From: a virus
IMG/VR virus record: IMGVR_UViG_3300044981_000029
Coordinates: 1 to 64,000 of that record
Strand: one strand, 5' to 3'
DNA length: 64,000 nucleotides
Shown: piece after piece, positions 34,723-57,084 of the stretch
Numbering within the stretch: position 1 is the first letter of the stretch
Layout of the letters: every line of letters starts with the position of its first letter
Notes under the pieces: generated by a model
Told to the model about the DNA's origin: nothing
Database searches by the model: none
The model's input: the letters and a program-made list of their open reading frames with translations, nothing else
Program-made: the position numbers and the translations under genes

Positions 34723-35004
34723 CTACGCCTTCTCTAGTTGTTCATATTCGATTTTGGTGTCAATCAGAGGTCGGAAACGCTCTGGTTTGAATGCCCATTC
34801 CTTCTCGTCTCCGTCGGCCCAAATTATCGTAGGATTGACCAGTTCCTCCAGATAAACGCCATATCCCTCGATATGGTCATTCACATCGAAACCGCGAACC
34901 GTATAGATTCCTCCGGTTCGTGGTAGCATTGTTACATAGGGACGAGTTTCTTGGTTGATGGAATCATCAACGCAAACTACCTTCTGTCCGATCCTAAGTA
35001 TCAT
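34723..35004 (-). CDS. Hypothetical protein, 93 aa
   Basis: ATG at 35004 (TGATG with the upstream stop). Reads MILRIGQKVVCVDDS ... YTVRGFDVNDHIEGYGVYLEELVNP ... WAFKPERFRPL. This small beta-barrel plan is very common in phages of alphaproteobacteria as a conserved hypothetical, with no function assigned. In the leftward early operon. Confidence 0.6.
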   Translation of the reverse strand: MILRIGQKVVCVDDSINQETRPYVTMLPRTGGIYTVRGFDVNDHIEGYGVYLEELVNPTIIWADGDEKEWAFKPERFRPLIDTKIEYEQLEKA

Positions 35005-43197: not shown

Positions 43198-43226
43198 CAT
43201 AAACCACGCATTTGATACCTTGTCAA
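43198..43226 (-). promoter_or_regulatory. Leftward promoter P2, promoter family member
   Basis: On the minus strand: TTGACA at 43226-43221, 17-base spacer containing GTATCAAA and ending TGG, TTTATG at 43203-43198. It matches P1 and P3. It drives the lipoprotein gene and the leftward block. It overlaps the rightward promoter for the regulator gene. Confidence 0.8.
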
Positions 43227-43268: not shown

Positions 43269-43667
43269 ATGACAGAAACCTATTACAGAAAACTGATCGC
43301 CCCGATAACGCGCCAGAATAAGATGGCGTATCAAGCGCTTGTCCGGGAATTTTCGAAGGTGCTCATCGCCGATTTCGCTGGGGTGAAAAACCAGGGTTTG
43401 AACCGGTGGGAGGTCATCCCGCTGTACTACGTCGAGAACATCTCGAAAAAGACCGGCATCCGGCCGTGTGATCTGCTGCCGGAACCGCCTTGGGGGCTGA
43501 GCTGGACGCTTCCCGATGATGGTTTGGCGGCGACCAAGCGCGCGATTGACGATTTCAAGTTTCGCCGCAACATCGTTGCGCCGATGAACCGCGCCCAGTA
43601 TGCGGACTTTCTGACGGAAAAGAAACGATTCGGCGGCAAACCGCCAAGTTTGGAGATCGCGCGATAA
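43269..43667 (+). CDS. YdaS/Cro-like helix-turn-helix regulator, 132 aa
   Basis: ATG at 43269, after CAAGGG. The segment VLIADFAGVKNQGLNRWEVIPLYYVENISKKTGIRPCDLLPEPPWG follows the YdaS/Cro plan: a helix, 'N-x-x-W' recognition helix, then 'IP' and 'TGI-P-DLLPEP'. It is the first rightward gene after the divergent promoters. It may bind the conserved TCAAA element of the promoter family; that is inference. The C-terminal 60 residues are basic and helical. Confidence 0.65.
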   Translation: MTETYYRKLIAPITRQNKMAYQALVREFSKVLIADFAGVKNQGLNRWEVIPLYYVENISKKTGIRPCDLLPEPPWGLSWTLPDDGLAATKRAIDDFKFRRNIVAPMNRAQYADFLTEKKRFGGKPPSLEIAR

Positions 43668-43682: not shown

Positions 43683-43874
43683 ATGCCTAAGTTACCGACC
43701 ACGCTCTATGCAAAGTCCGAATCTGACGATGGCAATGTGTACTATGTTACGGATACCAATATGTACAATTTGGCTGAAAGTGGTGAAAAGATCCAAATCG
43801 AGAAATATCAACTCATCGAGACCGTCGTCGCCGAAATGGTCGTTTCGACATCGAGACCAACAAAACGAAACTGA
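43683..43874 (+). CDS. Hypothetical protein, 63 aa
   Basis: ATG at 43683 after AGGAGAAA. MPKLPTTLYAKSESDDGNVYYVTDTNMYNLAESGEKIQIEKYQLIETVVAEM. A recurring small beta-rich phage protein. It follows the regulator gene and may be in the same transcript. No function assigned. Confidence 0.65.
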   Translation: MPKLPTTLYAKSESDDGNVYYVTDTNMYNLAESGEKIQIEKYQLIETVVAEMVVSTSRPTKRN

Positions 43875-43932
43875 GATCGCGCGATGATCCTGCCGGGGAG
43901 TGGCCTCCAGCGGCCGGAGGAAGCGCGGTAGT

Positions 43933-43960
43933 GGGGCGAGCCTTTGCGACAGCTCGCCCC
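43933..43960 (+). terminator. Strong GC-rich hairpin, attenuator or terminator candidate
   Basis: GGGGCGAGC, 10-base loop, GCTCGCCCC: a perfect 9-bp stem in the 100-base spacer before the gene at 43983. No T-run follows, so it may be a weak or Rho-assisted terminator, an RNA-processing site or an attenuator limiting expression of the genes beyond. A smaller hairpin precedes it (CCTCC/GGAGG). Confidence 0.45.
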
Positions 43961-43982
43961 GGCTAATTGAGGAGGAATGAGT

Positions 43983-50700: not shown

Positions 50701-50885
50701 AGCCAGCCAATTTCCCCGGCCGCAAAAACGATCGTCGCAAGCGCGCTCTCTCTCGGATGCGAGCCCGTGATGAGTTTGGGTACAACGATCCGTACTTCCG
50801 CACCGAGGTTAAAATTCTCAGCGATGCTGACGCGCGCTCGATTCGCACCAAGAAGGACCGCAGCGCGCGGGGCAAGCTTCGATGA
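50697..50885 (+). CDS. Hypothetical protein, 62 aa
   Basis: ATG at 50697 after GGAG. MKPANFPGRKNDRRKRALSRMRARDEFGYNDPYFRTEVKILSDADARSIRTKKDRSARGKLR: a strongly basic small protein of a recurring phage type. Stop overlaps the next ATG. Possibly nucleic-acid binding. Confidence 0.6.
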   Translation: MKPANFPGRKNDRRKRALSRMRARDEFGYNDPYFRTEVKILSDADARSIRTKKDRSARGKLR

Positions 50886-51013
50886 CCACCTATTGGATCA
50901 CGAAGTACGCGCTATCGGCCGGAGTTTTTCCGGTTGATGGTAAGAGGGAAGAATCTCTTGATATGCTCTCATGGCAAGGAAAATCCATGCGAGAATACGC
51001 CCCATGGAAATGA
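50882..51013 (+). CDS. Hypothetical protein, 43 aa
   Basis: MTTYWITKYALSAGVFPVDGKREESLDMLSWQGKSMREYAPWK. This opening (TTYWITKYAL) is common in phage small proteins. ATG overlaps the upstream stop. Its stop overlaps the start of the Gly-Tyr repeat gene. Confidence 0.6.
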   Translation: MTTYWITKYALSAGVFPVDGKREESLDMLSWQGKSMREYAPWK

Positions 51014-51453
51014 TCGAAGCAAAGATCATCAGGGGTGAGGTGCCGAACGGCTACGGCTACGGCTACGGCTACGGCTACGGCTACGGCTACGGCTACGGCT
51101 ACGGCTTATATTGGAAATCCACTATTGCCCATTTTGCAAGTAAGTGGACGGAAGACCAGCGGATCAAGTTCAAGGCGGCTGAGGCGATGGGGGCGACCAT
51201 CGCTTTCTGGAGATCAACAAAAAATGGTCTTCCTTCGAACGGCGGCGGAAAGATCGAGCCTGCTGCTCCAGGCGTCGTTCATACATCCTCTGGACCTCTT
51301 TCGCTATGCTCCGAAGGGACGTTGCACGCGACGCTTATTCCTCCGAAATGGAAAGGAGAGCGTTATTGGATTGTCGCGTTGCATGGCGAGGTAGTAGGCG
51401 ATGATGAAAAGTTCGGGTGCCTCAAACGCGAGATACTCGGCGAGGCTCTGTGA
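51010..51453 (+). CDS. Protein with Gly-Tyr repeat tract, 147 aa
   Basis: ATG at 51010 (ATGA with the previous stop); 51004 is also possible. Residues about 14-31 are nine Gly-Tyr dipeptides encoded by a perfect 6-bp repeat. The tract is followed by LYWKSTIAHFASKWTEDQRIKFKAAEAMGATIAFWR and a beta domain (HTSSGPLSLCSEGTLHATLIPPKWKGERYWIVALHGEVVGDDEKFGCLKREILGE) of a phage DUF type. The tract may be an oligomerisation or flexible segment. Function unknown. Confidence 0.65.
   Translation: MIEAKIIRGEVPNGYGYGYGYGYGYGYGYGYGLYWKSTIAHFASKWTEDQRIKFKAAEAMGATIAFWRSTKNGLPSNGGGKIEPAAPGVVHTSSGPLSLCSEGTLHATLIPPKWKGERYWIVALHGEVVGDDEKFGCLKREILGEAL
51049..51102 (+). repeat. Hexanucleotide microsatellite, nine perfect units
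   Basis: Nine perfect copies of GGCTAC in tandem, then GGCTTA. Each unit encodes Gly-Tyr, so gain or loss of copies changes protein length without shifting the frame. Confidence 0.95.
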
Positions 51454-51460
51454 TTTCCAA

Positions 51461-51552
51461 TTGCATCGCGCCTTCGGAAGTCCCCAGCCAGTAGGTAGCG
51501 ATGCAATGCCCGGCTCCATCCTAGACGGACAAGGAATACGATGGAGCCGGGC
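51461..51552 (+). ncRNA. Two consecutive strong stem-loops, candidate structured RNA or leader
   Basis: First: TTGCATCGC (51461-51469) with GCGATGCAA (51498-51506), a perfect 9-bp stem over 28 bases. Second: a perfect 13-bp stem, 51508-51520 with 51540-51552 (GCCCGGCTCCATC and its complement), around 19 bases. There is no T-run. It fills the 128-base gap before the gene at 51582 and could be a 5' leader switch, an RNase III site or a small RNA. Confidence 0.55.
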
Positions 51553-51581
51553 AACCATCTTAACCATAAAGGAAAACGAAA

Positions 51582-51983
51582 ATGCTTGCTCAGTCGTTCA
51601 AATCCGCCGCCGATCTACAAATCTCCGACGTTGAATTGTCCTCGCTGATCACCGTGCTCGGGATGCTTGAGCGCGGCGAGTTGGTCCATGACGCAGACAC
51701 GTATTGTGGCTTTCCGCGTGGTCAGAAATTCAATATGGGAGTCTCCCTAACGGAATCCTCCTGCGGCACGATCGGATGCATTGCTGGTTGGGCCTATGCC
51801 GTGTCGAACAGAGTCGCCTTTCCTGAGATGTTCTTAGATGACGGGTGGAACCGTCCTAACAAAGGTTTGATCAAGCTCTTCGGCATCGGCAAGAATACAT
51901 ATAACCTTTCCCCATATACTACGGATCAGGCTGCAATCGCACTGCGCAGCTATCTGACAACAGGCGAAGCGAAGTGGGAATAG
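51582..51983 (+). CDS. Hypothetical protein, 133 aa
   Basis: ATG after AAAGGAAAAC. MLAQSFKSAADLQISDVELSSLITVLGMLERGELVHDADTYCGFPRGQKFNMGVSLTESSCGTIGCIAGWAYAVSN. CGTIGCIAGWA is a recurrent motif of a conserved phage protein of unknown role. It is downstream of the structured RNA element, which may control it. Confidence 0.65.
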   Translation: MLAQSFKSAADLQISDVELSSLITVLGMLERGELVHDADTYCGFPRGQKFNMGVSLTESSCGTIGCIAGWAYAVSNRVAFPEMFLDDGWNRPNKGLIKLFGIGKNTYNLSPYTTDQAAIALRSYLTTGEAKWE

Positions 51984-55198: not shown

Positions 55199-55753
55199 AT
55201 GCCTGCTCTCAAAAAGGTAAAATACGAAGTGTTTGCCCAAGAGATCGCCAAGGGACGATCCGCCCTTGATGCTTACGCCATAGCTGGGTACCGGCCCTCA
55301 CCATCTGCCGCAGGGAACCTACGAAAGAAAACCGAAATAATGTTACGCGTCAGTGAGTTAATGTCTGAACGCGAGCAGATACACGCCCAATCGACCGCAG
55401 AGGCCATCCAGAGCGCGGCGCTGACCAAGACGTGGGTGATCACGCACTTGATGGAGAACGCGCTCACGTGCCTCGGTAAGATGCCTGTGAAGGTTTCGCT
55501 GGAGGGCGGCGGCGTGCTTGAGACCTACGAGCGCAATCCGCCGGCCGCGAACAAGGCTTTGGAACTGCTGGGCCGTGAAATAGGCATGTTCATTGAGCGC
55601 GTCGAAGTCGGCGACCCTGGCGAGTTTGCCCGCATGACGGATGACGAGCTGACAGCGCAGTTGATTGAGACGGCCGAGAAGCTTGAGATCGAGCCCAGCG
55701 CACTGGAGCACCTGCGGATCACGTACCAGCCGAAGGATGAGGACGAGGCGTAA
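55199..55753 (+). CDS. terS: Small terminase subunit
   Basis: 184 aa. YEVFAQEIAKGRSALDAYAIAGYRPSPSAAGNLRKKTEIMLRVSELMSERE is the helix-turn-helix N-terminal DNA-recognition domain of Terminase_2-type small subunits, with A-G-Y-x-x-x-x-x-x-A-x-x-L-x-x-x-x-V. A long helical body and an acidic C-terminus (DDELTAQLIETAEKL ... QPKDEDEA) follow. It would recognise the packaging site and recruit the large subunit at 57081. Confidence 0.8.
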   Translation: MPALKKVKYEVFAQEIAKGRSALDAYAIAGYRPSPSAAGNLRKKTEIMLRVSELMSEREQIHAQSTAEAIQSAALTKTWVITHLMENALTCLGKMPVKVSLEGGGVLETYERNPPAANKALELLGREIGMFIERVEVGDPGEFARMTDDELTAQLIETAEKLEIEPSALEHLRITYQPKDEDEA

Positions 55754-56776: not shown

Positions 56777-57084
56777 ACCACCCAATCCCCCGCGCCGGCA
56801 TAGAGGACAAAATGAACGATCAAGCGCCAACGCTCTCATACCCATTCGGGCGCGATGTTAATACCCTCGTGGTGTGCATGAATGAGGATCATCGCCGACA
56901 CGCCATCAAGAATTGTGGCATCAAGGCGCGGTACGAAACCATTGGCAGCGCTTTGTGCGGATGCCGGTATAACCACGTTGTTGTGCTCCGAACGGATCAG
57001 CCGTTTTCTGATGTGGAACGGCGCATCATTCGAGAGGACTTACCCACCAAACTCAGCCTTGGTGGTAAGTTGTATATTTGGTGA
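56773..57084 (+). CDS. Hypothetical protein preceded by a copy of the terminase start, 103 aa
   Basis: ATG at 56773 (ATGA with the previous gene). The first residues MNHPIPRAGIED closely match MNRPIPRSDIER at the start of the large terminase, 308 bases downstream. A second start at 56812 (GAGG five bases upstream) would omit this part. Main body: LVVCMNEDHRRHAIKNCGIKARYETIGSALCGCRYNHVVVLRTDQPFSDVERRIIREDLPTKLSLGGKLYIW. Looks like an inserted gene using a duplicated start. Confidence 0.55.
   Translation: MNHPIPRAGIEDKMNDQAPTLSYPFGRDVNTLVVCMNEDHRRHAIKNCGIKARYETIGSALCGCRYNHVVVLRTDQPFSDVERRIIREDLPTKLSLGGKLYIW

What the first reader, a model, noticed from the sequence alone, without database searches (positions are those of the whole stretch)
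51461..51552. Two back-to-back perfect stem-loops (9 bp and 13 bp) in a gene gap
The pair fills the space between the Gly-Tyr gene and the gene at 51582, with only one base between them and no T-run. A 13-bp GC-rich stem is stronger than expected by chance. It may be a small RNA, an RNase III site, a transcription brake or a cis-element protecting the mRNA.
Basis: partly seen in the sequence, partly recalled or inferred. Interest (0 to 1): 0.6.

Follow-up and report, generated by a model that had tools for sequence, protein, structure and literature searches.

The report
Paired RNA stem-loops in phage leader
Two strong back-to-back RNA hairpins lie between two genes of a soil phage; a second such pair lies elsewhere in the same phage, and related phages carry comparable pairs at the heads of the same operons, so they are probably cis-acting leader elements that steer phage transcription or mRNA use, although this has not been shown by experiment.

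Summary
Hairpin 1 (51460-51507, 10 bp plus an inner 4 bp) and hairpin 2 (51507-51553, 14 perfect bp, 19-nt loop) abut without a free base, fill the 128-nt gap between the Gly-Tyr gene and the gene at 51582, and have no U-tract on either strand. Chance is excluded: 400 shuffles gave 0.0075 stems of this length per 64 kb and never such an abutting pair.

Neither hairpin has a sequence homologue, so covariation cannot be tested on it. Comparison still gives a lead. The window holds a second flush hairpin pair (43876-43964), behind a Cro/YdaS-like HTH gene at the start of the early operon. Phages with related terminases carry similar leader hairpins at the same two places: behind the HTH gene, and about 6 kb upstream of terL. 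Their second hairpin has a covarying stem and a constant UUGGUGAYGC loop.

My best reading is a two-stem-loop leader RNA, placed like HK022 putR and nutR, most likely an elongation or antitermination signal. Membership in put is not shown. The window lacks the UUGGUGAUGC loop and has no recognisable promoter before this copy. A plain mRNA stability or processing element remains the main rival.

The parts
51010..51453 (+). upstream cistron: Gly-Tyr repeat protein, start ATGA overlapping the stop of ORF 50882-51013; stop TGA 51451-51453
   Evidence: ORF list; C-terminal domain conserved in 71 IMG/VR loci; choice of start from the ATGA overlap is inference
51454..51458 (+). UUUCC directly behind the stop, can pair with GGAAA 51571-51575 of the downstream Shine-Dalgarno
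   Evidence: partition function; pairing depends on context, probability about 0.07-0.99 by window chosen
51460..51507 (+). hairpin 1: 10-bp stem, bulged A, 4 inner pairs, 19-nt loop UCGGAAGUCCCCAGCCAGU
51507..51553 (+). hairpin 2: 14-bp perfect stem, 19-nt loop CUAGACGGACAAGGAAUAC, flush with hairpin 1
51531..51543 (+). AAGGA in loop 2 followed by ATG 51541 in the 3' arm; would open a 35-codon ORF overlapping gene 51582 out of frame
   Evidence: sequence and translation; AUG predicted fully paired; function not shown
51568..51573 (+). Shine-Dalgarno AAAGGA of the downstream gene
   Evidence: sequence
51582..51983 (+). downstream cistron, 133 aa, unknown function, weak matches to phrog_13468 and phrog_889; distant homologue in Bradyrhizobium phage BDU-MI-1
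43876..43929 (+). second pair in the window, hairpin 1 (branched), starts 2 nt after the stop of ORF 43683-43874
   Evidence: structure scan, fold (whole stretch z -2.0)
43930..43964 (+). second pair, hairpin 2 (core GGGGCGAGC/GCTCGCCCC 43933-43941/43952-43960), flush with its hairpin 1; SD AGGAGG 43970-43975 follows
43311..43667 (+). Cro/YdaS-like HTH gene ahead of the second pair
   Evidence: BLASTP to the HTH protein that precedes the leader in L171 (E 2e-9) and to the HTH protein of G005 (E 2e-13); Pfam on L171 only below cut-off

Best explanation
The pair is a cis-acting two-stem-loop leader RNA of the phage. It is transcribed on the + strand between two cistrons, folds as soon as it is made, and is one of two such elements in this genome: one behind the Cro-like HTH gene at the start of the early operon (43876-43964), one 5.5 kb upstream of terL (51460-51553). 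My most likely mechanism is that the folded nascent RNA, alone or with a phage or host protein, changes the elongating RNA polymerase so that it reads through pauses and terminators of the long downstream operon, as HK022 putL/putR and lambda nutL/nutR do. Shown: the structure, its non-chance nature, the gap between cistrons, the second copy, and comparable leader hairpins in related phages at equivalent places. Inferred: that the window pairs belong to the same kind as the relatives' pairs, and the action on RNA polymerase.
For: Structure and non-chance. A structure-only scan of 2.43 Mb for a strong hairpin, at most 8 nt, a GC-rich hairpin, then SD and start codon returned the UUGGUGAYGC leaders of related phages (L175, L168, L171, L236, L237, L224) and exactly two places in the window, both intergenic: 51507 and 43933. 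In both window copies the two hairpins abut with 0 nt and begin 2-6 nt after a stop codon. Relatives: leader hairpin directly behind the HTH gene in L168, L171, L175, and ahead of the operon leading to ParB-like, terS and terL genes in L083, L084, L085, L086, L224; two copies each in the records of L085/L171 and of L086/L175. Their second stem covaries (4 of 10 pairs changed on both sides, 100% paired, 0 of 500 shuffles) around a constant loop. Late copies lie behind TTGA(T/C)T-N17-TATgTT-like promoters (read by eye). The hairpin 1 region of 4 of 9 relatives and of the window contains CCCCAG. The HTH gene before the second window copy is homologous to that of the relatives.
Against: The window's hairpin 2 loops do not contain UUGGUGAUGC and no sequence homologue exists in IMG/VR, phages or plasmids. 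No sigma70-like promoter was found just upstream of 51460. The 43876 pair folds only modestly better than shuffles (z -2.0). The two window copies are not significantly alike (p 0.08). The closest large relative (G005) has no pair behind its HTH gene and only a single short hairpin at the late position; G002 lacks the late copy. No terminator that would need to be overcome was identified. CCCCAG and synteny were noticed after the fact.
Confidence: 0.36

Rival explanations
1. Intercistronic mRNA stability or processing element: the stems stop 3' exonucleases on the Gly-Tyr message, or are cut by RNase III so that the downstream message gets its own 5' end.
For: Very stable abutting helices without U-tract between two co-directional cistrons. 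About ten other Gly-Tyr loci, with unrelated downstream genes, have strong hairpins at or just behind the stop (L011, L013, L016, L031, L038, L049, L062, L067, L072, L079); in L013, L016, L031 and L038 the coding arm differs and the 3' arm still pairs.
Against: Enrichment behind Gly-Tyr genes over other genes of the same loci is weak (8/63 vs 12/202 at z<-2.5, p 0.10; 4/63 vs 2/202 at z<-3.5, p 0.03, threshold chosen afterwards). Does not account for the second pair in the window.
Confidence: 0.3
2. Translational control of gene 51582: its Shine-Dalgarno is held by UUUCC right behind the Gly-Tyr stop, the two hairpins bring the partners together, and a ribosome ending on the Gly-Tyr gene frees it (coupling). 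A variant: AAGGA in loop 2 serves as a standby site.
For: SD unpaired probability 0.00-0.13 in four windows beginning at the end of the Gly-Tyr gene, 0.17-0.35 with a ribosome footprint on the stop; 3% of shuffles hide it as well. AAGGA-N5-ATG in loop/stem 2.
Against: The closing helix is context dependent (probability about 0.1-0.6 in several windows); it would form without the hairpins too; post hoc.
Confidence: 0.14
3. Atypical intrinsic terminator without U-tract ('I-shaped'), single or bidirectional.
For: GC-rich 14-bp stem just behind a gene.
Against: No U-tract on either strand; the next gene on the same strand begins 28 nt later with its own SD and no promoter-like site is seen in between.
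Confidence: 0.08
4. Trans-acting small RNA, for example a decoy for a GGA-binding protein (loop 2 has ACGGA and AAGGA) or an antisense RNA.
For: Two ANGGA motifs in loop 2 (sequence).
Against: No promoter or terminator of its own, no Rfam match, loops not conserved.
Confidence: 0.06
5. DNA-level element: operator, replication or recombination site read as inverted repeats.
For: Inverted repeats exist in DNA as well; the - strand also folds better than shuffles (z -4.4).
Against: Loops of 19-28 nt are long for a dimeric operator; two flush repeats; + strand z is stronger.
Confidence: 0.06

Closest known systems
HK022 putL/putR RNA (PMC9378689)
   Same: two successive stem-loops, near-abutting; two copies per genome; cis in phage operon leaders; putR lies about 270 nt behind the PR start and, from general knowledge, in the cro region, as the window's second pair lies behind a Cro-like gene
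   Different: put is about 70 nt with bulged stems and a G-A pair at the junction; here about 94 nt with nearly perfect stems and long loops; no sequence likeness shown; host is probably not a gammaproteobacterium; no activity known
Lambda nutL/nutR (boxA, boxB)
   Same: general position behind a cro-like gene and at operon heads (general knowledge)
   Different: nut has one small boxB hairpin plus boxA; here two large hairpins; boxA not searched for
ESAS of cluster K mycobacteriophages (PMC3203893)
   Same: inverted repeats a short way upstream of the SD and start of small phage genes
   Different: ESAS are many copies of a conserved 17-bp repeat with a 13-bp start-associated sequence; here two unlike pairs per genome
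UUGGUGAYGC leader hairpin of related phages (found here, L083-L086, L168, L171, L175, L224, L255)
   Same: GC-rich stem of 10-13 bp, in most copies behind another hairpin, roughly 25-40 nt before a start codon; same two genome positions
   Different: loop UUGGUGAYGC constant there, absent from the window
T7/E. coli RNase III intercistronic sites
   Same: stable stems between cistrons
   Different: no cleavage data; from general knowledge only

Membership tests
HK022 put RNA | two tandem stem-loops, junction of at most one base | tested here: met
   definition
HK022 put RNA | two copies per genome with sequence similarity to each other | tested here: inconclusive
   two pairs found but local alignment not significant (p 0.08)
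HK022 put RNA | located downstream of a promoter in the operon leader | tested here: inconclusive
   no promoter-like site near 51460; one weak site, 9 of 12, at 43220 ahead of the 43876 copy, no more than chance
HK022 put RNA | bulged stem II and unpaired or G-A junction contacting the beta' zinc-binding domain | tested here: not met
   hairpin 2 is a perfect 14-bp stem and no junction base is left
HK022 put RNA | suppresses termination and pausing | not testable with these tools
   needs experiment
UUGGUGAYGC leader hairpin (this work) | loop UUGGUGAYGC | tested here: not met
   only matches with 2 mismatches, at chance frequency
UUGGUGAYGC leader hairpin (this work) | two-hairpin leader between a stop codon and an SD/start | tested here: met
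intrinsic terminator | GC-rich hairpin followed by a U-tract | tested here: not met
any Rfam 15 family | covariance-model score above gathering | tested here: not met
RNase III site | cleavage in the helix by RNase III | not testable with these tools
   needs experiment

The most novel reading that the evidence does not exclude
The window pairs and the UUGGUGAYGC leaders are variants of one undescribed class of two-stem-loop processive antitermination RNAs in phages of soil alphaproteobacteria, used at the heads of both the early and the late operon.
Probability: 0.17. Interest if true: 0.7.

Novelty: new variant of a known kind. Interest (0 to 1): 0.4.

Why it matters
RNA-only antitermination is known to me from HK022 alone among the cases read here. 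If two-hairpin leaders at both operon heads of these phages do the same, the mechanism would extend beyond enteric phages. Even if they only protect or process mRNA, they mark the operon heads of a large group of uncultured soil phages whose regulation is unknown.

Tried and rejected
Sequence homologues of the pair: none in phages, plasmids or IMG/VR. Loop cores in IMG/VR: hairpin 2 loop core in 37 stretches, none with a stem comparable to the window's, context of a coding word TDKEY; hairpin 1 loop core 0. Relatives of gene 51582 in IMG/VR: none, one distant phage homologue without a similar upstream region. A conserved hairpin behind all Gly-Tyr genes: not found. tRNA: none. Rfam: none, also none in three relatives' loci with the leader hairpin. 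CUAGAC loop shared with a G005 hairpin: only 7-8 bp there, kept as a weak hint. Loop-loop kissing between hairpins 1 and 2: only GUCC/GGAC, 4 bp. A covariance model was not built, because the window pair has no alignable homologue.

Full report
What is there. The window is part of a 70,194-bp virus record of a tailed phage with terS at 55199 and terL at 57078. Around 51 kb the genes run on the + strand with little space. The Gly-Tyr gene ends with TGA 51451-51453, and the next gene starts at ATG 51582 with an AAAGGA 9 nt ahead. The 128-nt gap is almost filled by two hairpins, 51460-51507 and 51507-51553. Hairpin 1 has 10 perfect pairs, a bulged A and 4 more pairs around a 19-nt loop. Hairpin 2 has 14 perfect pairs around a 19-nt loop. 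The two helices abut. MFE is -50.7 kcal/mol, z -7.0 on the + strand and -4.4 on the other, the most extreme stretch of the window.

Chance. In 400 shuffles of 1-kb blocks keeping dinucleotides, stems of at least 14 bp with loops up to 40 nt occurred 0.0075 times per 64 kb; the best abutting pair summed to 19 bp, against 24 here. A tandem search in the terL relatives found no other abutting pair of perfect stems of 8 bp or more with a sum of at least 19.

No direct homologue. DNA searches at near and distant sensitivity gave nothing in phages and plasmids, an exact 30-mer of hairpin 2 gave nothing in IMG/VR, and the loop cores gave only unrelated matches without a comparable stem. Rfam has no match.

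The Gly-Tyr neighbour. Its C-terminal domain occurs in 71 IMG/VR loci, each with other neighbours. Some have strong hairpins at the stop codon; in L013, L016, L031 and L038 the stop lies in the loop and both arms differ between loci while still pairing. Over all loci the excess over other genes is small and not significant at the first thresholds. This keeps a 3'-end protection or processing role open.

Relatives by terminase. Phages with about 60% terL identity (L083-L086) hold a recurring hairpin with a constant loop TTGGTGA(T/C)GC and stems of different sequence. A pattern scan of IMG/VR with the stem left mostly free split cleanly: 6 of 38 hits have 10-11 pairs around the loop, the other 32 have 0-2. 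For the five distinct stems of one subfamily all 50 cells pair, 4 of 10 pairs have changes on both sides, and no shuffle of 500 reaches the covariation score. One copy lies behind a small HTH gene and before a gene with a match to phrog_26995 (L168, L171, L175). The other lies before the genes leading to a ParB-like gene, terS and terL, 5.8-6.8 kb before terL in L085, L086 and L083. The late copies have promoter-like TTGAYT-N17-TAT(g/c)TT sequences about 65-80 nt ahead, read by eye. Folding shows that most of these hairpins are the second of two successive ones, clearly so in L084, L085, L086, L168, L171 and L175.

Back to the window. A structure-only scan for a strong hairpin, at most 8 nt, a GC-rich second hairpin and an SD with start codon, over 2.43 Mb, returned these leaders and two places in the window. 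One is the finding. The other is 43876-43964: two flush hairpins that begin 2 nt behind a stop codon and end about 18 nt before a start codon. It lies behind an HTH gene homologous to the one that precedes the leader in L171 (E 2e-9) and to the HTH gene of G005 (E 2e-13). The finding itself lies 5.5 kb before terL. So the window has two pairs at the two positions where relatives have their leaders. The remaining hits of the scan mostly have irregular, branched first hairpins; I did not check each for coding context.

Interpretation. Two successive stem-loops, twice per genome, at an operon head and behind a Cro-like gene, is the layout of HK022 putL/putR (about 70 nt, two stem-loops, downstream of PL and PR) and in position of lambda nut. 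I therefore put an elongation or antitermination leader first, at 0.36. It is not filed as put: the perfect stem II and lack of a junction base do not match the put structure, the two window pairs are not significantly alike, and activity is unknown. The weak points are the missing constant loop in the window, the missing promoter before 51460, the modest z of the second pair, and relatives that lack one copy (G005, G002).

Other mechanisms. Translational coupling has a concrete form: UUUCC behind the stop pairs with the SD GGAAA and is freed by a terminating ribosome, but the helix depends on the folding window. An intrinsic terminator lacks its U-tract. A small RNA lacks promoter and terminator.

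Shown: structure, non-chance, location, second pair, covarying leader hairpins in relatives. Inferred: common kind, and action on the polymerase.

Noticed in passing
L083:782, L085:4126, L086:4234, L224:8727, L255:1325, L084:about 893, L168:13403, L171:13470, L175:1514: Recurrent leader hairpin with invariant loop TTGGTGAYGC and covarying GC-rich stems, in most copies behind another hairpin, just upstream of start codons at two operon heads of related phages; no Rfam match in L083, L084 and L171. A likely undescribed phage RNA family.
   Followed up: yes
window 43876-43964: Second flush hairpin pair in the window, between ORF 43683-43874 and the gene starting at about 43977/43983.
   Followed up: yes
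L013, L016, L031, L038, stop codon of the Gly-Tyr gene (about 2320-2360): 9-11-bp hairpins with the stop codon in the loop; the coding arm differs between loci and the non-coding arm compensates.
   Followed up: partly
window 51048-51105: Run of (GGCTAC)n coding (Gly-Tyr)n, with a conserved C-terminal domain of unknown function (no Pfam or PHROG match) in soil phage contigs and a few genome contigs.
   Followed up: partly
window 34826-34925 and 50876-50975: Next most structured 100-nt stretches of the window by z-score (-4.9 and -4.5).
   Followed up: no
window 51541-51648: 35-codon ORF whose SD lies in loop 2 and whose ATG lies in stem 2; overlaps gene 51582 out of frame.
   Followed up: partly
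L062 about 520-600: Long hairpin followed by TTTTTTT behind a Gly-Tyr gene: an ordinary intrinsic terminator there.
   Followed up: no
L163:4168-4188 (- strand): Hairpin GGCGAGC-TAGACAG-GCTCGCC before an SD/ATG in G005: stem like the second window pair, loop like the start of loop 2 of the finding.
   Followed up: partly
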